From: Streptomyces sp. NBC_01497
GTDB taxonomy: Bacteria > Actinomycetota > Actinomycetes > Streptomycetales > Streptomycetaceae
Direction: 5' to 3'
Assembly: GCF_036250695.1 (NCBI RefSeq)
Contig: NZ_CP109427.1
Span: 7,130,001-7,194,000, forward strand
Length of the DNA: 64,000 bases
Part shown: positions 11,310-31,141 of the stretch, piece after piece
Layout of the letters: each line of letters starts with the position of its first letter
How positions within the stretch are numbered: the stretch's first letter is position 1
Program-made: the position numbers and the translations under genes
Notes under the pieces: generated by a model
What the model was told of the DNA's origin: nothing
Seen by the model: the letters and a program-made list of their open reading frames with translations, nothing else
The model's database searches: none

Positions 11310-11501
11310 CCGGCGGGACGGACCCCGGCCCTCCGGCTGGACCGGGGGCGCGGTACCTGCGTGTGCTCGCGCCGTGTCCGTGCGTCCCGCGGTGCGGCGC
11401 GGGCCGTTCACCGCGCCCGTCGGCTCCGCTCGGCCATCGGCAACGTACATGTCACCGGAAGTTCGGCCCCCGCAGTGGTACGTGCCGTTAACGTCGGTGG
11501 C

Positions 11502-21884: not shown

Positions 21885-22524
21885 GCCCGGCCCTGCCGGG
21901 CACCCTGGAGGGCCGGTCTCAGGTGCCGAGGGTCCTCCAGGGCTTCGGCCGGGGGATCCCGCCCGGGACCAGGGAGGCCGGGCAGTCACATCCCCGGCGG
22001 CCGATGAGCGCACGCGTCGGGGCGGTGCACCGCGGGATGATCCTCGGCGAGAGGACGAGGCTGCTCCCGTGACCGCCCCGGGGTCTTCCCACGACCGTGA
22101 CGTTTCTCCTGAAGGAGACCGCCCGCAGGGCCCGGCGCATCGGCCCCAGGGGTCGCGAAATCCATACGGTCCGTCCCGAGCTCGGCGCCGACGGCTCGGG
22201 GTGTTGACGGCTCGGGGCGCCGACGGCACGGGGAATCACGCCTTCATCGACCTGCTCGTCGCCGGAGGACAATCGCCGTCACTCTCGGCAAGGGCGACAA
22301 CTGCCCCCATTCGACTCCGTGTTGCTTTGCCGACAGACTGCCACGCAATGCAGTGAAACCACACCAAAACAACTTTGCACAGCCATTGCACAGGGGTAGA
22401 CGGCCGCTTTACCGCCCTGGTTTCATTTTCCCCGTCCAGCATTTCCAACGTTGGAAAGATGGTGGAGGCATGCACCTCTGCCGTTTCTGGACGCTGGGTT
22501 CTCCCACGGAGAGGTGTATCCGCA
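21885..22524. other. Long leader region before the GH2 gene
   Basis: About 640 bp hold no convincing gene. Short open frames in the first half are Arg/Pro-rich shadows. The second half (from about 22280) is clearly less GC-rich and contains the LacI-type palindrome at 22442-22457 and the ribosome-binding site of the GH2 gene. It is most likely promoter and regulatory DNA. Confidence 0.5.
22442..22457. promoter_or_regulatory. LacI-type operator before the GH2 gene
   Basis: TTTCCAACGTTGGAAA is a perfect 16-bp palindrome with a central CG, the usual form of a LacI/GalR-family operator. It lies 67 bp upstream of the GTG start of the secreted GH2 enzyme. No LacI-family gene is present in the window, so the repressor must be encoded elsewhere. 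Confidence 0.75.
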
Positions 22525-25161
22525 GTGAGATCAGGCAGATTCCGCTCACCTGACCGACGCCGACTGGCAGCCCTGGTGACGCTGCTGCTGGGCGCGGCGC
22601 TGCTCGTGCCGTCCACGGCCAGTGCCGTGCAGGCGCCGCCGTCCACCGGGTCCGCGGCCGACACCCCGCAGGGACTGCGCGCGGACTACTACCTCAGTTC
22701 CGACGCCACGTCACTGGACTTCGCCCAGTACAGCAGCACCGGCGTCGAGAAGTCCCTGAACGTGCCCGACCTGCTGCCGACGCTGCGCGACAACGCGGGT
22801 TCCACCCTGAACGTCGCCGCGCACTTCACAGGCCGGCTCGACGTCCCGGCCGGCGGGACGTACACGTTCTACATCAAGGGCGACAACGGCTTTCGGATGT
22901 CGCTCGACGGTGCGAGCGTGATCGACCACTGGACGAGCGACTGGGACGTGCAGACGCAGTCCGAGCCGATCACGCTGACCGCCGGCCCACACACCCTGGC
23001 GTACGACTACAACCAGGGCAACGGCGGCGCGTACATCACGACCGAGTGGTCGGGCCCCGGGATCAGCCGGCAGGCGATCCCCGACTCCGCGCTGCACCTG
23101 CCGGAGGGCTTCACCCCGCCCGGCGTCGACGCCGCGGTCACCGCGTCGGGCAAGGCCGCGACCGTACAGCTGCCCGGCCAGGTCACCTCGCTGCCGTCCG
23201 ACATCGGCAAGCACCTGGCGGTCATCGCCGGCAGCAGCCGGTGGACGCCCGACGTCGCGGTCAACCCCGCCGACGCGTCGCAACTCCTGCTGACCGCGGG
23301 GAAGTCCGACATCCCGGCCGCGCTGAAGGCCAAGGTGCGGATCAGCTACGACGGGCAGGGCGGCCTGACCACCGCCGCGGGGCCCGTGCCGCTGTTCTCC
23401 GGCCTGGCGACCAACAACTCCACCTGGTACTTCGCCACCAAGTGGGCCAAGGACGTCAGTCCCAAGAACGCGCTCCCGGACTACCCCCGGCCGCAGTTGA
23501 CCCGCGACACGTGGCAGAACCTCAACGGGACCTGGCAGTTCCAGGCCACCGACGAGAAGGCCCCGCTGCCGAAGGGCAAGCTCAGCGGATCGATCCTGGT
23601 GCCGTACCCGATGGAGGCGCCGCTGTCCGGCGTCGCCGAGCACCACGACTGGTCGCTGTACCAGCGCGCGTTCAGCGTCCCGCAGAACTGGAAGCTCGGT
23701 TCGGGCAACCGGCTGAACCTCAACTTCGGTGCGGTGGACTACGAGACATGGGTCTACGTCAACGGCAAGCAGGTCGCCCACCATGTCGGCGGCTACGAGG
23801 CGTTCACCGCCGACGTCACCGACGCGCTGGCCGGCCGCGGGCCGCAGACCCTCACGCTGAAGGTCAAGGACACCATCGACGACGACACGCCGACCGGCAA
23901 GCAGTCGAGCGACCCCAGCGGAATCTGGTACACCCCGTCCTCCGGTATCTGGCAGACCGTCTGGATGGAGCCGGTGGCCAAGGCGAGCGTCGACTCGCTG
24001 GTCCTGACGCCGAACCTGTCCGACGACACCCTCGCCGTCACCGTGCGCCCGTCGGCCGGCACCCCCGCCTGGTCCCTGGTGAACGCCACCGCGTACGCGG
24101 GGAACAAGCCCGTGGGCACGGTGACCGGCACCGTGGGCACCAAGCTCACGCTGCGCGTTCCGCACCCGGAGCTGTGGAGCCCCGACCACCCCTACCTGTA
24201 CCACCTCAAGGTCAGGCTCACCGACGGCCGTTCGTACGACTCGGTGGGCTCGTACTTCGGTATGCGGTCGGTCTCCGTCGCCAAGGCAGGCGGCGCGAAC
24301 AAGATCGAGCTGAACGGCAAGCCGACCTACCTGCTGGCCAACCTGGACCAGGGCTTCTGGCCGGACGGCATCTACACCGCGCCGACCGACGCGGCCCTCA
24401 GGTCGGACCTGGAGCTGGACAAGCAGCTCGGCTTCAACACGGTGCGCAAGCACATCAAGGTGGAGCCCGCGCGCTGGTACTACTGGGCCGACAAGCTCGG
24501 CCTGATGGTCTGGCAGGACATGCCGAGCCGCAACGTCGGGCCCGGCGCGAGCGAGGCCAGCGACAAGGCGTTCACCGACCAGGCCCACGAGATCGTGGAC
24601 CAGCACCTCAGCAGCCCGTCGATCGTCGTCTGGACGATGATGAACGAGGGCTGGGGCGAGCAGTCCAAGGAAGCCACCGGCGCGCTGGCCGACTCGATCA
24701 AGCAGCAGGACCCGAGCCGGCTCGTCGACGCGGCATCCGGTGTCAACTGCTGTGCCTCGCAGGGTGACTCAGGGCAGGGAGACCTCATCGACTACCACCT
24801 GTACCACGGTCCCGCGTCACCGTCCCCGGACGCGACCCGGGCAGCCGTGGACGGCGAGCACGGCGGGTACTCGCTGAACATCCCCGGCCACATCCTGGGC
24901 GTGGCCGGCGGCCAGAACTACGGTGGTGACGCCTCGACCGTCGCGGAGCTGACCAAGGACTACGTGGACAACACCGGCCAGTTGCTGTCCGGCGCGGCCG
25001 GAAGCCTGTCCGGCTCGGTGTACACGCAGATCAGCGACGTCGAGGGCGAGCTGAACGGGTTGATCACCTACGACCGCAAGGTCCTCAAGGTCGAACCCGG
25101 TCCGGTCCGTGACATCAACCGCAAGCTCATCGCGGCCGGCTCCACGGCGGGCGGGGCGTAG
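22525..25161 (+). CDS. Secreted PA14-domain glycoside hydrolase family 2 protein
   Basis: This 878-residue exoenzyme has a signal peptide: Arg-rich start, LAALVTLLLGAALLV core, cleavage after STASA (about residue 34). A PA14 carbohydrate-binding domain follows (about 45-190, with YTFYIKGDNGFRMSLDG). GH2 then covers about 325-870: sugar-binding jelly roll with NLNGTWQFQ, immunoglobulin-like part, and TIM barrel. The acid/base Glu is in VVWTMMNEGWGEQ (about residue 708) and the likely nucleophile in AVDGEHGGY. GH2 members are beta-galactosidases, beta-mannosidases or beta-glucuronidases; which of these applies is not clear. The GTG at 22525 has GGAGAGG 10 nt upstream; an open frame begins 150 bp earlier but gives no signal peptide at its start. 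The neighbouring ROK/ABC/mannosidase locus suggests mannose-containing glycans. Confidence 0.88.
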   Translation: MRSGRFRSPDRRRLAALVTLLLGAALLVPSTASAVQAPPSTGSAADTPQGLRADYYLSSDATSLDFAQYSSTGVEKSLNVPDLLPTLRDNAGSTLNVAAHFTGRLDVPAGGTYTFYIKGDNGFRMSLDGASVIDHWTSDWDVQTQSEPITLTAGPHTLAYDYNQGNGGAYITTEWSGPGISRQAIPDSALHLPEGFTPPGVDAAVTASGKAATVQLPGQVTSLPSDIGKHLAVIAGSSRWTPDVAVNPADASQLLLTAGKSDIPAALKAKVRISYDGQGGLTTAAGPVPLFSGLATNNSTWYFATKWAKDVSPKNALPDYPRPQLTRDTWQNLNGTWQFQATDEKAPLPKGKLSGSILVPYPMEAPLSGVAEHHDWSLYQRAFSVPQNWKLGSGNRLNLNFGAVDYETWVYVNGKQVAHHVGGYEAFTADVTDALAGRGPQTLTLKVKDTIDDDTPTGKQSSDPSGIWYTPSSGIWQTVWMEPVAKASVDSLVLTPNLSDDTLAVTVRPSAGTPAWSLVNATAYAGNKPVGTVTGTVGTKLTLRVPHPELWSPDHPYLYHLKVRLTDGRSYDSVGSYFGMRSVSVAKAGGANKIELNGKPTYLLANLDQGFWPDGIYTAPTDAALRSDLELDKQLGFNTVRKHIKVEPARWYYWADKLGLMVWQDMPSRNVGPGASEASDKAFTDQAHEIVDQHLSSPSIVVWTMMNEGWGEQSKEATGALADSIKQQDPSRLVDAASGVNCCASQGDSGQGDLIDYHLYHGPASPSPDATRAAVDGEHGGYSLNIPGHILGVAGGQNYGGDASTVAELTKDYVDNTGQLLSGAAGSLSGSVYTQISDVEGELNGLITYDRKVLKVEPGPVRDINRKLIAAGSTAGGA

Positions 25162-25493: not shown

Positions 25494-25791
25494 TCATCCC
25501 CGCTCGGGAACCCACCGCACCGTCAGGATCTGGAACGGGCGCAGCCGCAGCCGCACCCCGTCATCCGTGAGTTCGCAGCTCGACTCGTCGGCGACGCGCG
25601 GACGCTCCAGCAGGTCGGTGGCGATGGCCGGCGCGATGCGGAAGCCCGGGGTGAGCAGCGCCGTGGCGCTCGCCCGGGACCTGCCGGACGTCCACGTCGA
25701 GCTGCACGGACACGGCGTGGACGGCGGGCCTGTTGCGTTCGTCGAGTACGTGCCGCAGGCGCCGCTCGACGATGTCGCGGTCGCCACGCAC
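25494..25791 (-). pseudogene. Relic of a GH38 alpha-mannosidase (internal deletion plus frameshift)
   Basis: Only about 100 codons remain of a gene normally near 1,000 codons long. From a GTG at 25791, preceded by a good GAGGAAGG site, one frame reads VRGDRDIVERRLRHVLDERN and RPAVHAVSVQL, the recognisable start of actinobacterial GH38 alpha-mannosidases. Near 25660-25672 the homology jumps to a second frame reading RASATALLTPGF, ATDLLERP and RLRLRPFQILTVR, the family's C-terminal end, stopping at 25494. The middle, with the whole catalytic domain, is gone, and the two pieces are out of frame. It is the last cistron of the sugar ABC operon, 50 nt after the second permease. Recognition of both ends is from memory of the family, so a similarity search is the decisive check. 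Confidence 0.75.
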
Positions 25792-25841
25792 AGAGCACCT
25801 TCCTCAGGACGTACGTGAACAGCAAGAGTACGTCGGTGAGT

Positions 25842-26747
25842 TCACCCCTTCAGGGCGCCGCCGAGCGCGAACCCGCCGCCCAGCTTGCGGGTGAGCAGGA
25901 GGTAGAGCATCACGACGGGCAGTGTGTAGACGAGGGAGAACGCGGCCAGCTGCCCGTACTGCGTCTGGTCGTGGGCGCTGAGGAAGGTGAACACACTCAC
26001 CGACGCCGGCAGCTTCTCCGGCGACAGCAGCAGCACGAAGGGGACGAAGAAGTTTCCCCACATGCTGATGAAGGTGAACACGGTGACGACGATGACTCCG
26101 GGCCACATCAGGGGCAGCACCACCCGTGCCAGGCACTGCATGGCGTTGGCGCCGTCGATCCTGGCCGCCTCCTCCAGGACGATGGGCACACCGTCCATGA
26201 AGTTCTTCATCAGCCAGATCGCGATCGGCAGTGCGGACGCCGTGAGGAACAGCATGGTCGCGGCCATCGAGTCGATCAGATCGACCTGGACGAACATGCT
26301 GTAGACGGGGATCATCACCGCGGTGATGGGCAGCCCGGTGGTGAACAGGACGGTGTACAGGAAGGGGCGGCGCAGCCGGGAGCGGTAGCGCGACAGCGGG
26401 TAGGCCGCCAGGATCGAGACGATCACGCACAGCAGGGTCGCGCCGCCGCACAGCAACAGGCCGTTGAGCAGCGGCCGGAAGGTGGTGTCGGTGTTGAGGA
26501 TCGCGTGGAAGTTGTCCCACGTCGGCGGCGAGGGCAGGCTCAGTTCGAAACTGGCCGTGGAGCTGACGGACGCGAGCACCATCCACACCAGTGGCAGCAC
26601 GAACAGCAGGCAGATCACCAGCAGGACGAGGTTGACCGCGATGCGCGCGGGCCGGATGCGGCGCGCGGTTCCCGCGGCGGGCGCGGGGCGGGCGCCCCGG
26701 CCGTCGCGGCCCGCCGTGGCCGCCGGCCTCAGGTCGGTGGTGGCCAT
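25842..26747 (-). CDS. Sugar ABC transporter permease (MalG-type, second permease)
   Basis: This 301-residue CUT1-type inner membrane permease has six hydrophobic segments. The EAA loop is EEAARIDGANAMQCLARVVL (about residues 195-214), which docks the ATPase. The ATG at 26747 overlaps the stop of the first permease by one base (TGATG), so translation is coupled. The cytoplasmic N-terminus is rich in Ala/Pro/Arg. No ATPase is in the operon. Streptomyces CUT1 importers usually share the MsiK ATPase encoded elsewhere, and that is likely here too. It precedes the mannosidase relic. Confidence 0.93.
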   Translation of the reverse strand: MATTDLRPAATAGRDGRGARPAPAAGTARRIRPARIAVNLVLLVICLLFVLPLVWMVLASVSSTASFELSLPSPPTWDNFHAILNTDTTFRPLLNGLLLCGGATLLCVIVSILAAYPLSRYRSRLRRPFLYTVLFTTGLPITAVMIPVYSMFVQVDLIDSMAATMLFLTASALPIAIWLMKNFMDGVPIVLEEAARIDGANAMQCLARVVLPLMWPGVIVVTVFTFISMWGNFFVPFVLLLSPEKLPASVSVFTFLSAHDQTQYGQLAAFSLVYTLPVVMLYLLLTRKLGGGFALGGALKG

Positions 26748-27673
26748 CAGTCCTCCTCCACCTTGAGCAGCTTGAGGTACACAACGGAGAACAGGGCGCC
26801 CACGACCAGCAGGACGAGCGCGATCGCCGTGCCGTAGCCGATCAGGCTGTTCTGGAACGCCTGCTGGTACATGAAGACCGGCAGCGTCTGGCTCTTGTTG
26901 CCGGGGCCGCCGCGTGTCATGGCGTAGATCAGTCCGAAGACGGAGAGCGTCTGCAGGGTGATCAGCATCAGATTGGTCATGATGGAGCGTCGGATGACCG
27001 GGAGTGTGACGTGCCACAGCCTGTGCCACACGCCCGCGCCGTCCATCTCGGCGGCCTCCACCAGTTCGCGCGGCACCTCGGCGAGCGCGGCGGAGTAGAC
27101 CATCATCGAGAACGCGGTGCCGCGCCACACGTTGGCCAGGCACACGGCGAGGATCGGCAAGGTGTACAGCCAGTTCTGCCGCGGCAGGCCGAGCACGCCG
27201 AGCACCTCGTTGAGCGCACCCTGCTGGTAGAAGAACGCGTACATCAGGTACCCGGCGACGATCTCGGGCAGCACCCAGGCGGCGATGACCACGGCGTTGG
27301 TGAGCGAGCGCACCGGACGGGTGGCCTTCTCGGCGAGGACCGCCAGGCTCAGGCCGAGAGTGTTCTGCCCGACGACGGCGGAGCCGACGACGAACACCAG
27401 CGTCAACCAGAGCGCGTTGAGGAAGTCCGGATCGGCGAACGCGCGCGTGAAGTTGGCCAGCCCCACGAAGTGCGTCTCTGCCGCGCCGGTCAACTGGGCG
27501 TCGGTGAAGGCGTCGTAGACGCAGTAGAGGATCGGCCCGGCCAGGAACACGGCCAGCAGGACGAGGGACGGCACCAGCGGGAGACCACGCAGGAACGACG
27601 AGCCGGCCACGCGGCCGCCTGCCGCACGGCCCGGGGGGCCTGCGCCGTCGGCGGGTGCGGCGGCGGATTTCAC
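26747..27673 (-). CDS. Sugar ABC transporter permease (MalF-type, first permease)
   Basis: This 308-residue permease has six transmembrane segments and the EAA loop ELVEAAEMDGAGVWHRLWHV (about residues 200-219). The GTG at 27673 overlaps the stop of the binding-protein gene (GTGA), and its own stop overlaps the next ATG. The three importer genes are thus translationally coupled. It should pair with the second permease to form the membrane channel for an oligosaccharide. The substrate is inferred to be a mannosidic sugar from the GH38 relic and the ROK regulator, by analogy with similar actinobacterial operons. Confidence 0.93.
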   Translation of the reverse strand: MKSAAAPADGAGPPGRAAGGRVAGSSFLRGLPLVPSLVLLAVFLAGPILYCVYDAFTDAQLTGAAETHFVGLANFTRAFADPDFLNALWLTLVFVVGSAVVGQNTLGLSLAVLAEKATRPVRSLTNAVVIAAWVLPEIVAGYLMYAFFYQQGALNEVLGVLGLPRQNWLYTLPILAVCLANVWRGTAFSMMVYSAALAEVPRELVEAAEMDGAGVWHRLWHVTLPVIRRSIMTNLMLITLQTLSVFGLIYAMTRGGPGNKSQTLPVFMYQQAFQNSLIGYGTAIALVLLVVGALFSVVYLKLLKVEED

Positions 27674-29046
27674 CGGGTGCCCTTGGCAGTGCTGTCGGAG
27701 CCGACGGCCGTGGCCAGGTCCTGGTCGTACGTCTTCGCGGCATCCGAAACCGAACTCTGGCCGGTGGTCACGGACTCCATGGCCTTGGTGATGGCGTTGG
27801 AGACCTGCGGGTACTTCGGCAGCGCCGGACGGAAGTGGGTGTACTTGACCAGGCCGGTGAAGAACTTGTTGGTCGGCGTGGCGTCGAGGTACTTCGGGTC
27901 GGCGGCGACGTCCGTGCGCACAGCGGTGGTCGACTCGATGATGTTCCAGTTCGTCGAGTTGGCCTTGTCCTTGATCGCCTTCGTGAACTGCCATGCCAGA
28001 TCAGGGTTCTTGGCCTTGGCCGGGATGGACCAGGCCCAGCCTCCCGACATGCTGACCTGGCCGGGTGCCTGACCGTGCTGGGTCGGCATGGCGGCGGAGG
28101 CCATCGTCCTGCTCCACCCGGGCCACGGACGCGGCCCTGTCGTGAGCCAGTTGTTCGCCATCCATGAGCCGTCGATGTTGATGGCGAGCTTGTTCTCGGG
28201 GAGCAGCTTCGTGCCGACCTCGGTGCCCGCGTTCGGACCGAGCGCGGTGGACTTGGACAGGCCCAGGTTCTCGCTGTACACGTCGTGGACGAACGTCAGC
28301 GCGTCCTTGAAGCCCTGGGAGCCGACGATCCACTTCTTGGTCTTGGCGTCGTACAGGGAGTCGCCGGCGGCGCCGGTCCCGTACAGCAGCATCTCGAAGC
28401 CCTGCATGGTGGACTGCTCGCCGCCGGCCTGCCCGGTGTAGAGGTTCATCGGCGTCACACCCGGCAGTTTCTTCTTGATCGTCCGAGCGACGTCAAGGAT
28501 GTCCTGCCATGTTTTGGGCTGCCAGGGGGTGGCGATCCCGGCCTTCTTGAGCAGGTTCTGGTTGTACCAGATGCCTCGGGTGTCGGTGTCGTCCGGAACG
28601 CCGTACGTCTTGCCGTCGGCGGGCGAGGAGACGGCGCCCTTGGCGGCGTCGGCGAAGGAGTCCCAGTCCGCCCACTTGGCCACGTACGCGTCGATCGGTT
28701 TGAGGTATCCGCTGGCTATGTCGGAGTTGATCAGCGCGGTGTCCTCGTAGACCAGGTCGGGAGCGGTCGAAGGCGAGCGCATCATCAGCTGGATCTTCGT
28801 GTAGTAGTCGTTCTCGGACGCCGTGACCGGAATGATGTCGATCTTCTTGCCCGGGTGGGCCTTCTCGAAGGACCGCTTCATGGTGGTGAGGAACGTCTGC
28901 TGCTTGTGGTCGTTCTGATCAAGGTGCTGCCAGTAGACGACCTTGATCGAGTTGCCGCCGCTACCGGAGGCGGAGCCGCCGCAGCCTGCGGCGGACAACG
29001 TTGTTGCGACCGTGATCGCGAAGGCGGCGAGAAGTTTCTTGCGCAA
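27670..29046 (-). CDS. Sugar ABC transporter substrate-binding lipoprotein
   Basis: This 458-residue extracellular binding protein is anchored by lipid. From a TTG at 29046 the protein begins MRKKLLAAFAITVATTLSAA, followed by GCGGS: a signal peptide with lipobox LSAAGC, lipidated Cys near residue 22. The TTG is supported by GGAGG 6 nt upstream and by the lack of a better start; the upstream frame is not signal-like. The mature part has the solute-binding fold, with VVYWQHLDQNDHKQQTFL at the start and many aromatic residues typical of CUT1 sugar binders. It is the first gene of the operon and is divergent from the ROK regulator, which should control it. Confidence 0.93.
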   Translation of the reverse strand: MRKKLLAAFAITVATTLSAAGCGGSASGSGGNSIKVVYWQHLDQNDHKQQTFLTTMKRSFEKAHPGKKIDIIPVTASENDYYTKIQLMMRSPSTAPDLVYEDTALINSDIASGYLKPIDAYVAKWADWDSFADAAKGAVSSPADGKTYGVPDDTDTRGIWYNQNLLKKAGIATPWQPKTWQDILDVARTIKKKLPGVTPMNLYTGQAGGEQSTMQGFEMLLYGTGAAGDSLYDAKTKKWIVGSQGFKDALTFVHDVYSENLGLSKSTALGPNAGTEVGTKLLPENKLAINIDGSWMANNWLTTGPRPWPGWSRTMASAAMPTQHGQAPGQVSMSGGWAWSIPAKAKNPDLAWQFTKAIKDKANSTNWNIIESTTAVRTDVAADPKYLDATPTNKFFTGLVKYTHFRPALPKYPQVSNAITKAMESVTTGQSSVSDAAKTYDQDLATAVGSDSTAKGTR

Positions 29047-29232
29047 GGGATCCTCCGAAGGGTGCGGCGCGTGCGCCTTACTCCGGCGCGCGACTGCGGG
29101 TGGCACGGGTCGTAGCTGTGGGGAGATACGGGACGTACGGGAGGGATGTGCTGCTCGCGAACACGGACAGGCGCGGACGGTGCCGGGACGCGGCAGGTGC
29201 TGGTGGGGTGCGTGCTGCGCCTGGCGCATTAC

Positions 29233-29255
29233 CTAAATCCAATGGATGGACTAAG
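29233..29255. promoter_or_regulatory. ROK-type operator in the divergent promoter
   Basis: A 23-bp imperfect palindrome has left arm CTAAATCCA and right arm TGGACTAAG, seven of nine positions matching. It sits in an AT-richer stretch between the sugar ABC operon and the ROK gene. Its position and symmetry fit repression of both by the ROK protein. Confidence 0.7.
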
Positions 29256-29356
29256 TCAACGTCTCTTGCATAATCAGGGTGCCCAAGTTCCGCGGGCAGG
29301 AGTCGCGTTCGTGGCCGCCGGCCGCACGCACCCGCACGAGGGAGGAGCGCCCCACC

Positions 29357-30595
29357 ATGCGAAGCGGTACCAACCTGCCCCGGGTGGGTGGTTACAACCA
29401 GGCCGTCGTCCTGGACGCCATCCGCACGAGAGGTCCCGTCAGCCGCGTCGAGTTGGGGCCGCTCACCGGGCTCACCAATCAGACGGTGTCCAATGTCGTG
29501 CGACGGCTGCTCGACGCGGGCCTGATCACCGAATCGGGGCACGCCCCCTCCAGCGGCGGCAAACGCCGCACCCTGCTGATGCCACGCGCCGACGGCGCCT
29601 ACGCCCTCGGTGTGCACCTCGACCCCGACGCGGCCGTGATCGTCCTCGTCGACCTCGCGGGATCGGTACTGCGCAGCCGCCGGTTCGCGCTGCCTCGGCC
29701 CAGTGTCCCCGAGGAGGTGGTCGACGCGGTGGCGCGCGCCGCACTGCGGCTGCCCGAGCACGCCGCCATCGACCGCGGTCGCCTGCTCGGCCTCGGCATC
29801 GCCGCGCCCGGACCCCTCGACGGTGAGACCGGGACGGTGGTGGAGCCGCCCAACTTCGACGGCTGGAGACGGGTTCCGCTGCTCGACATGTTCGCGAAGG
29901 CGACCGGCATGCCGGTCGCGCTGGACAACGACGCGACGGCCGCGGCGATCGGTGAGCGCTGGATCGGCGGAAAGCAGCGCGCAGACGGCTTCCTGTTCCT
30001 GTACATGGGCGCGGGTATCGGCGCCGGCATCATGCTCAACAACCAGGTCCTGCGCGGCGGCACGGGCAACGCGGGCGAGATCGGGCATGCCCGGATCGAC
30101 GCCGGGAACCGCCTCTGCGATTGCGGGAGCAACGCTTGCCTCGGCCCCCACTGCAACCCTGCCGCACTGGTCGACGACCTGTTCACCCGGCACGGCCGGA
30201 GCGCCGCGGAGCGCATCGGGCTCAGCGGCGAGCCCGACGCGGTGCGCGCCGACTGGAAGCTGCTGCGGCGTGCGACGCGCGCCGGTGATCCGGCGGCCCG
30301 CGAGGTGGTGCGCCTGGCGGGCCGCCGCATGGGGCAAGCGGTGCACGGGGCCGTGGCACTGCTCGACGTGAGCCGGGTGGTGCTGGGCGGCGAGGCACTC
30401 GCAGGCGTCGAGCACGTCCTGGGCGAGGAGATCGACGCCGCCGTCAACACCACCTCGGTGACCCGCGTCCTGGGCGGCGTCACGGTGGAACCCAGCCTGA
30501 TCGGCGAGACGGCAGGAGCGGTGGGCGCCGCGTCGCTGGTCCTCCATGGGCACTACGCGCCAGGCTGGCGCATGCTGACGGAGGCGTCGGGGTGA
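29357..30595 (+). CDS. ROK-family transcriptional regulator of the sugar operon
   Basis: This 412-residue repressor has an N-terminal winged helix (QAVVLDAIRTRGPVSRVELG, TGLTNQTVSNVVRRLLDAGL, about residues 14-65). A ROK sugar-kinase-like domain follows, with LGIAAPGPLDG, DNDATAAAIGE and a cysteine cluster LCDCGSNACLGPHC in place of the usual CxCGxxGCxE zinc site. GHARID just before supplies the metal-binding His. The ATG at 29357 has GGAGGAG 9 nt upstream. It is divergent from the binding protein/permease operon and probably responds to a transported sugar or its phosphate. The kinase function is likely lost in such regulators. Confidence 0.92.
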   Translation: MRSGTNLPRVGGYNQAVVLDAIRTRGPVSRVELGPLTGLTNQTVSNVVRRLLDAGLITESGHAPSSGGKRRTLLMPRADGAYALGVHLDPDAAVIVLVDLAGSVLRSRRFALPRPSVPEEVVDAVARAALRLPEHAAIDRGRLLGLGIAAPGPLDGETGTVVEPPNFDGWRRVPLLDMFAKATGMPVALDNDATAAAIGERWIGGKQRADGFLFLYMGAGIGAGIMLNNQVLRGGTGNAGEIGHARIDAGNRLCDCGSNACLGPHCNPAALVDDLFTRHGRSAAERIGLSGEPDAVRADWKLLRRATRAGDPAAREVVRLAGRRMGQAVHGAVALLDVSRVVLGGEALAGVEHVLGEEIDAAVNTTSVTRVLGGVTVEPSLIGETAGAVGAASLVLHGHYAPGWRMLTEASG

Positions 30596-31141
30596 GGCGC
30601 CCGGCCGGGGTGAGGGGTGGAAGAGGCCGGCTCGCCGGCGCCACCCGGGCGAGCCGCGAGCCGGCCACGAGGTGATCCGGGGGCAGCGGCCGGAGCCGAG
30701 CGGTTTCCTGTCCGCGGGCGCCCCGCCGCCCCCCAGCTGATCATGAACGTGGCGGGCGGCACGGCCCGCTGCCGTTGAACGCCGCGCCCACCGGATCCGG
30801 TGCTTCCGCAGGAGGACCCGCCGGCAGGCCACGCCGACCTCCGTGAGACCGGGGGAGTGATGAGGGACGGCTCCCGGTGGTCCCGAGCCGAGCGCGACGC
30901 CGCTGGGGAGCGCGTCGCCGTCCGGCCCGGCTCGTACGGCGGCGGCCCGCGTACAGGAGGGACTCGTACACGGGTGCGGACGTTGCGGCGATCGAGCGGC
31001 CGGGGACCGACGCCCACGCCGTCCACGATCGGCGTTGCCCGCAGGATCGTGGGGCGGGGGCCCGGAGGAGCACACCCGCTGGGCGGCCGGCGGTGCGAGC
31101 CCCATGAGCCGGCGGCGATCAGGCCCGGGTACTGTCGACGG
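30596..31141. other. Intergenic region between ROK gene and SURF1 gene
   Basis: About 545 bp have no supported gene; the open frames on both strands are Arg/Pro-rich shadows. Arms GGCCGGCTCG (30625-30634) and CGAGCCGGCC (30657-30666) pair perfectly and may end ROK transcription. The promoter of the SURF1 gene is expected near the right end but was not identified. Confidence 0.5.

What the first reader, a model, noticed from the sequence alone, without database searches (positions are those of the whole stretch)
25494..25791. GH38 alpha-mannosidase reduced to its two ends in a living sugar operon
The minus strand opens, after a good ribosome-binding site, with a typical GH38 N-terminus and ends 100 codons later with a typical GH38 C-terminus in another frame. 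The catalytic body, probably over 2.5 kb, is missing. The importer and ROK regulator upstream are intact, so the cell may still take in a mannoside but cannot cut it with this enzyme. The joint GGGCGAGCG could be a microhomology, as often left by deletion.
Basis: partly seen in the sequence, partly recalled or inferred. Interest (0 to 1): 0.75.

Follow-up and report, generated by a model that had tools for sequence, protein, structure and literature searches.

The report
Mannosidase gene gutted, importer kept
A Streptomyces sugar-uptake operon has lost the middle of its sugar-cutting enzyme gene, and two close relatives lost the same gene with different traces left behind, while the importer genes stay intact, so uptake seems to have stayed useful after the linked enzyme was not.

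Summary
Confirmed. Window 25494-25791 (minus) holds the first ~41 and last ~58 codons of a GH38 alpha-mannosidase, joined out of frame. Streptomyces sp. HmicA12 and PsTaAH-137 carry the intact gene (~1,020 aa) at the same place behind the same ROK regulator, binding protein and permeases; 2765 bp are missing here. The body is nowhere else in this genome, though five other GH38 domains are. The proposed 9-bp microhomology is not supported; the overlap is 0-2 bp.

New: of 33 informative close loci, 31 have GH38 behind the permease. The two without it, S. fuscigenes and Streptomyces sp. 8L, form one clade with the window. 8L keeps gene DNA that the window lost and lacks DNA that the window kept, so their deletions are independent. 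Importer genes stay full length with dN/dS below 0.35. A conserved 23-bp palindrome occurs perfectly once in each of six genomes. One further GH38 type occurs in 3 of 3 losers and 0 of 17 keepers, but the losers are one clade. Ordinary gene loss, with an interesting repeated pattern.

The parts
25668..25791 (-). remnant of the GH38 amino end, GTG start and about 41 codons
   Evidence: aligns to the start of the intact GH38 of PsTaAH-137 and HmicA12
25494..25669 (-). remnant of the GH38 carboxyl end, about 58 codons and the stop, in another frame; 25668-25669 (GC) match both sides in HmicA12
   Evidence: aligns to the end of the intact GH38
25842..26747 (-). permease 2 of the ABC importer, intact (301 aa)
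   Evidence: BPD_transp_1, 52.5 bits; full length in 6 of 6 loci
26747..27673 (-). permease 1 of the ABC importer, intact; GTG start at 27673 chosen by eye
   Evidence: BPD_transp_1, 63.4 bits for 26747-27619; full length in 6 of 6 loci
27670..29046 (-). solute-binding lipoprotein of the importer, intact; TTG start at 29046 chosen by eye
   Evidence: SBP_bac_1, 112 bits; full length in 6 of 6 loci
29233..29255 (.). 23-bp palindrome, probable ROK operator
   Evidence: footprint across 11 aligned loci; one perfect copy in each of 6 genomes
29357..30595 (+). divergent ROK-family regulator, intact (412 aa)
   Evidence: ROK 170 bits, MarR_2 28.7 bits; full length in the 5 loci where it could be read

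Best explanation
The operon once encoded a ROK-controlled ABC importer and a GH38 alpha-mannosidase to cut what was imported. In the window's lineage a 2765-bp internal deletion removed the catalytic body and broke the frame, leaving a dead 298-bp remnant (shown by comparison). The same gene was lost by a different deletion in Streptomyces sp. 8L and no trace of it was found in S. fuscigenes (shown; the latter may be independent or not). The importer stays intact in all three, the regulator in the two where it could be read (shown). The likely reason is that other GH38 enzymes in these cells, above all a type seen only in these three species, can cut the imported mannoside in trans, so the linked copy became dispensable (inferred).
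For: Intact gene at the same place in three relatives, 31 of 33 close loci with GH38 behind the permease. Window, S. fuscigenes and 8L one clade, 100/99; 8L holds about 55 bp beyond the window's 5' breakpoint and lacks about 150 bp that the window has. Binding protein and permeases full length in 6 of 6 loci, dN/dS 0.07-0.34 over the pairs tested, ROK included. Palindrome perfect in losers and near keepers alike. L001-type GH38 in 3 of 3 losers and 0 of 17 keepers. Window differs at 4 conserved residues, not counting the joint, against 0-3 in 29 intact copies.
Against: The losers are one clade, so the L001 association is a single contrast. Keepers too have further GH38 genes: the total of PF01074 places is 6 - 1 = 5 in the window's genome, 4 in S. 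fuscigenes, 5 in 8L, against 5, 4 and 2 in the near keepers, operon copy included, and L002-like genes occur in 7 of 14 farther keepers, so redundancy alone does not force the loss. The palindrome was not found near L001 or L002, so no shared ROK control is seen. dN/dS of the importer genes is somewhat higher in loser-HmicA12 pairs than between keepers (binding protein 0.31-0.34 against 0.21-0.26; permease 2 0.28-0.33 against 0.16-0.24), though window against PsTaAH-137 is 0.19 and 0.23. No substrate is known.
Confidence: 0.5

Rival explanations
1. The importer changed its job: in this clade it serves a cargo that needs no alpha-mannosidase (free mannose, another oligosaccharide or a signal), so the GH38 was useless and decayed while import stayed under selection.
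For: Repeated loss of the enzyme with the importer kept. More distant relatives of the permease (under 72% identity) mostly lack GH38 directly downstream: 40 of 46 loci. Slightly higher dN/dS of the binding protein in loser-HmicA12 pairs.
Against: Binding proteins of losers and keepers remain 85-91% identical to that of the window and the palindrome is unchanged in the window and S. fuscigenes.
Confidence: 0.25
2. Plain decay: the whole operon is on its way out in this clade, the GH38 went first by chance, and the importer will follow.
For: Enzyme lost at least twice; dN/dS of importer genes somewhat raised in some loser pairs.
Against: No stop or frameshift in the importer genes of 6 of 6 loci, including the three losers, and dN/dS well under 1; operator-like palindrome perfect.
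Confidence: 0.17
3. Assembly artefact: the full gene is present and was collapsed.
For: No reads could be examined.
Against: Two-contig assembly, 99.75% complete; no long repeat at the breakpoints in the relatives (by reading); changes at conserved residues in the remnant; two sister assemblies lack the gene with other traces.
Confidence: 0.03
4. The remnant is kept as a small gene (76 codons from the GTG).
For: Open frame behind a ribosome-binding-site-like stretch.
Against: 8L lacks the start region and S. fuscigenes has no remnant; the frame after the joint is the former carboxyl end read out of frame.
Confidence: 0.02

Closest known systems
GH38 alpha-mannosidase (Pfam PF01074 region) next to a ROK-controlled ABC importer in Streptomyces and Actinacidiphila
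   Same: Same gene order and place: ROK, divergent binding protein, two permeases, GH38
   Different: Here only the two ends of GH38 are left, out of frame
Pseudogene by internal deletion
   Same: Both ends retained, body lost, frame broken, neighbours intact
   Different: Nothing in kind; what stands out is the separate loss of the same gene in sister species
ROK-regulated CUT1-type sugar importer (class name recalled)
   Same: Divergent ROK gene with a palindrome between
   Different: In three species the operon has no hydrolase of its own behind the permease; the palindrome was found once per genome in the six scanned

Membership tests
GH38 alpha-mannosidase (functional enzyme) | catalytic GH38 N domain (PF01074) | tested here: not met
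   Search of the whole own genome lists five places, none at the remnant
GH38 alpha-mannosidase (functional enzyme) | one open frame from start to stop | tested here: not met
   First frame stops after 76 codons; the two ends are in different frames
Pseudogene of GH38 | both ends homologous and collinear with an intact gene at the same place in relatives | tested here: met
   PsTaAH-137, HmicA12; also NBC_01016
Pseudogene of GH38 | relaxed selection on the remnant | tested here: inconclusive
   4 changes at conserved sites besides the joint against 0-3 in 29 intact copies; dN/dS 0.39 and 0.25 against HmicA12, dN of the 3' part as between intact copies
ROK-regulated ABC sugar importer | ROK domain with a DNA-binding domain | tested here: met
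   PF00480 170.2 bits; MarR_2 28.7 bits, cut-off 27
ROK-regulated ABC sugar importer | solute-binding protein and two permeases | tested here: met
   PF01547 112 bits; PF00528 63.4 and 52.5 bits
ROK-regulated ABC sugar importer | ATPase subunit | not tested
   None looked for; in Streptomyces a shared ATPase encoded elsewhere is usual (recalled)
ROK-regulated ABC sugar importer | an alpha-mannoside as transported substrate | not testable with these tools
   Inferred from linkage with GH38 in 31 of 33 close loci

The most novel reading that the evidence does not exclude
In one Streptomyces clade, loss of the linked hydrolase from a ROK-controlled sugar importer was favoured and happened at least twice, giving an import-only regulon with a single operator whose cargo is cut by an unlinked, lineage-specific GH38 or used uncut, for example as a signal.
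Probability: 0.3. Interest if true: 0.55.

Novelty: new member of a known kind. Interest (0 to 1): 0.4.

Why it matters
The remnant itself is an ordinary pseudogene. The comparison gives a small natural experiment: one enzyme gene removed in sister species by different deletions while importer and regulator stay. It makes testable whether an importer and its enzyme are selected as a unit or whether unlinked enzymes take over, and it warns against reading substrate use from an importer alone. It also gives a strong single-copy candidate ROK operator that can be tested by gel shift.

Tried and rejected
Microhomology GGGCGAGCG: rejected; that sequence is absent from the searched last part of GH38 in three intact relatives. 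A looser candidate, GAGCCCG near both ends in HmicA12, does not predict the window's joint exactly (my reading).

Relaxed selection by dN/dS: too few codons to decide. Count at conserved sites: leans towards relaxation, modestly; one of the five counted changes is the junction residue and is left out of the figure of 4.

Take-over under the same ROK operator: no site up to 4 mismatches in the 15 and 16 kb around own L002 and L001 (L113, L114) or in L252 (S. fuscigenes); one 4-mismatch site in L251 (8L) at 11460. The 3-mismatch sites of the six-genome scan (1, 4, 1, 2, 2, 4) are not above the reversed-pattern control (4, 5, 2, 5, 6, 4).

Small functional ORF: not supported by 8L or S. fuscigenes.

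What follows the permease in the more distant loci (Kribbella and others): ORFs of 10 of those loci listed, not identified; left open.

Papers: five searches. I saw listings and the starts of abstracts only, read no paper, and none of the titles or abstract starts shown describes this operon or the loss of its enzyme. That is no proof that nothing is in print.

Full report
What is there. On the minus strand, 50 bases beyond the stop of permease 2 (25842), GTG at 25791 opens with a GH38 amino end; after about 41 codons the sequence goes over into a GH38 carboxyl end in another frame, ending at 25494. Both pieces match the two ends of GH38 gene L002 of the same genome. The window is part of a 9.08-Mb assembly of 2 contigs, 99.75% complete. 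Its close matches are named Streptomyces records; records of its own genome may be left out of that listing, so its species name is not known.

Intact relatives. A DNA search with the remnant in 100 and then 392 genomes (sets that overlap) found two with strong matches, G083 and G351, where the halves lie at the two ends of one gene; the other matches were much weaker. In PsTaAH-137 the open frame is L066 6597-9710; window 25668-30605 aligns to it at 86%, to HmicA12 at 89% and to NBC_01016, which also has the gene, at 84%. The missing length is 2765 bp against HmicA12 and PsTaAH-137. Beyond the operon, the flanks do not align to the same place in PsTaAH-137 or HmicA12 as far as searched; S. 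fuscigenes shares the window's outer flanks.

How often GH38 follows this permease. One search kept the best 80 of 508 relatives of permease 2. Of these 80, 34 have a permease at least 72% identical; one has no room behind it. Of the other 33, 31 have GH38 directly downstream, some cut by contig ends, and two do not: L116 (S. fuscigenes JBL-20) and L117 (Streptomyces sp. 8L). Of the 46 loci below 72%, 4 have it clearly, 1 weakly (25% identity), 1 has no room and 40 do not; whether these are the same gene by descent was not tested.

The losses differ. The window, S. fuscigenes and 8L form one clade in a tree of 3.3 kb of operon DNA with 13 rows, support 100/99. Against the HmicA12 gene, S. fuscigenes matches up to the permease stop and beyond that only weakly (E 0.004 or worse, taken as chance); the window keeps both ends; 8L keeps a 71-bp piece (58 of 71 identical, E 2e-13) that reaches about 55 bp past the window's 5' breakpoint, and lacks about 150 bp that the window has. 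Neither of these two deletions can derive from the other. An earlier common defect that silenced the gene is not excluded, and the S. fuscigenes loss may or may not be a third event.

What is kept. Binding protein and permeases are full length in 6 of 6 loci (window, three keepers, two further losers), ROK in 5 of 5 readable; 8L's contig ends before it. Pairwise dN/dS is 0.07-0.34. It is somewhat higher in loser-HmicA12 pairs than between keepers for all three importer genes (binding protein 0.31-0.34 against 0.21-0.26; permease 1 0.14-0.21 against 0.07-0.15; permease 2 0.28-0.33 against 0.16-0.24), while loser-loser pairs lie between (0.20-0.29, 0.11-0.16, 0.20-0.25). So constraint is clear, but a slight easing cannot be excluded. 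A 23-bp palindrome between the ROK and binding-protein genes, CTTAGTCCATCCATTGGATTTAG in the window, is conserved in the 11 loci aligned, with 0 or 1 mismatch to the pattern CTWARTCCANNNNNTGGAYTWAG. In 6 of 6 genomes it occurs perfectly once, with no other site at 1 or 2 mismatches. In five of them, by coordinates, that site is the operon's; in 8L it lies at the edge of contig 165, taken to be the missing half of the operon, which was not shown. It is the likely ROK operator (inferred).

Other GH38 genes. The window's genome has five other PF01074 places. L002 lies among a LacI-like regulator, binding protein, two permeases and another hydrolase-like gene; no importer is evident around L001 in 16 kb (functions read from the sequences, not scanned). 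In trees of 18 and 48 GH38 proteins the L001 type occurs in the window, S. fuscigenes and 8L only, and the L002 type in the same three, with L002-like genes in some keepers; HmicA12 has one gene (L206) basal to both. The 48-row tree is a quick one with long-branch warnings. Keepers examined: 3 near and 14 farther, the 14 chosen from 31 keepers. In the 14, 36 matches at E up to 1e-60 were found; 30 were placed by tree and 6 by best match, 4 operon-type and 2 nearest to L002-type. So the L001 type is in 3 of 3 losers and 0 of 17 keepers, and L002-like genes are in 7 of the 14. As the losers are one clade, this is one contrast, not three.

Selection on the remnant. Against HmicA12, dN/dS is 0.39 (38 codons of the 5' part) and 0.25 (58 codons of the 3' part); dN of the 3' part (0.090) is about that between intact copies (0.091-0.109). 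At columns at least 90% conserved among 29 intact copies, the window differs at 5, one of them the junction residue; the intact copies differ at 0-3. Two of the changes hit residues invariant in 29 of 29, besides the joint. This leans towards a gene no longer under selection and against an assembly collapse, without proving either.

Reading. The remnant is a pseudogene made by an internal deletion (near certain from the comparison). That unlinked GH38 enzymes made the operon copy dispensable while uptake stayed useful is the explanation I favour (inferred, about even odds); a changed cargo and plain decay are the main rivals.

Noticed in passing
window 29233-29255: 23-bp palindrome between the ROK and binding-protein genes, perfect once in each of six genomes scanned; probable ROK operator.
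   Followed up: yes
window 22375-25161: Converging gene on the + strand with PA14 and GH2 domains; S. fuscigenes has unrelated DNA at this place.
   Followed up: partly
window 25494-30611 against L066 and L115: The operon is an 84-89% identical block whose flanks do not match the same place in PsTaAH-137 or HmicA12, as if the whole block had moved.
   Followed up: partly
L113 5266-14657: Second operon in the same genome: LacI-like regulator, binding protein, two permeases, a hydrolase-like gene and an intact GH38 (L002) (functions read from the sequence).
   Followed up: partly
L251 at 11460: In Streptomyces sp. 8L a 4-mismatch version of the palindrome, with one half nearly perfect, lies on the contig that carries two GH38 genes.
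   Followed up: no
L118 11052-12209: In NBC_01016 the gene behind GH38 reads like a GH130-type mannoside enzyme (by eye, not scanned), which would fit a mannoside pathway.
   Followed up: no
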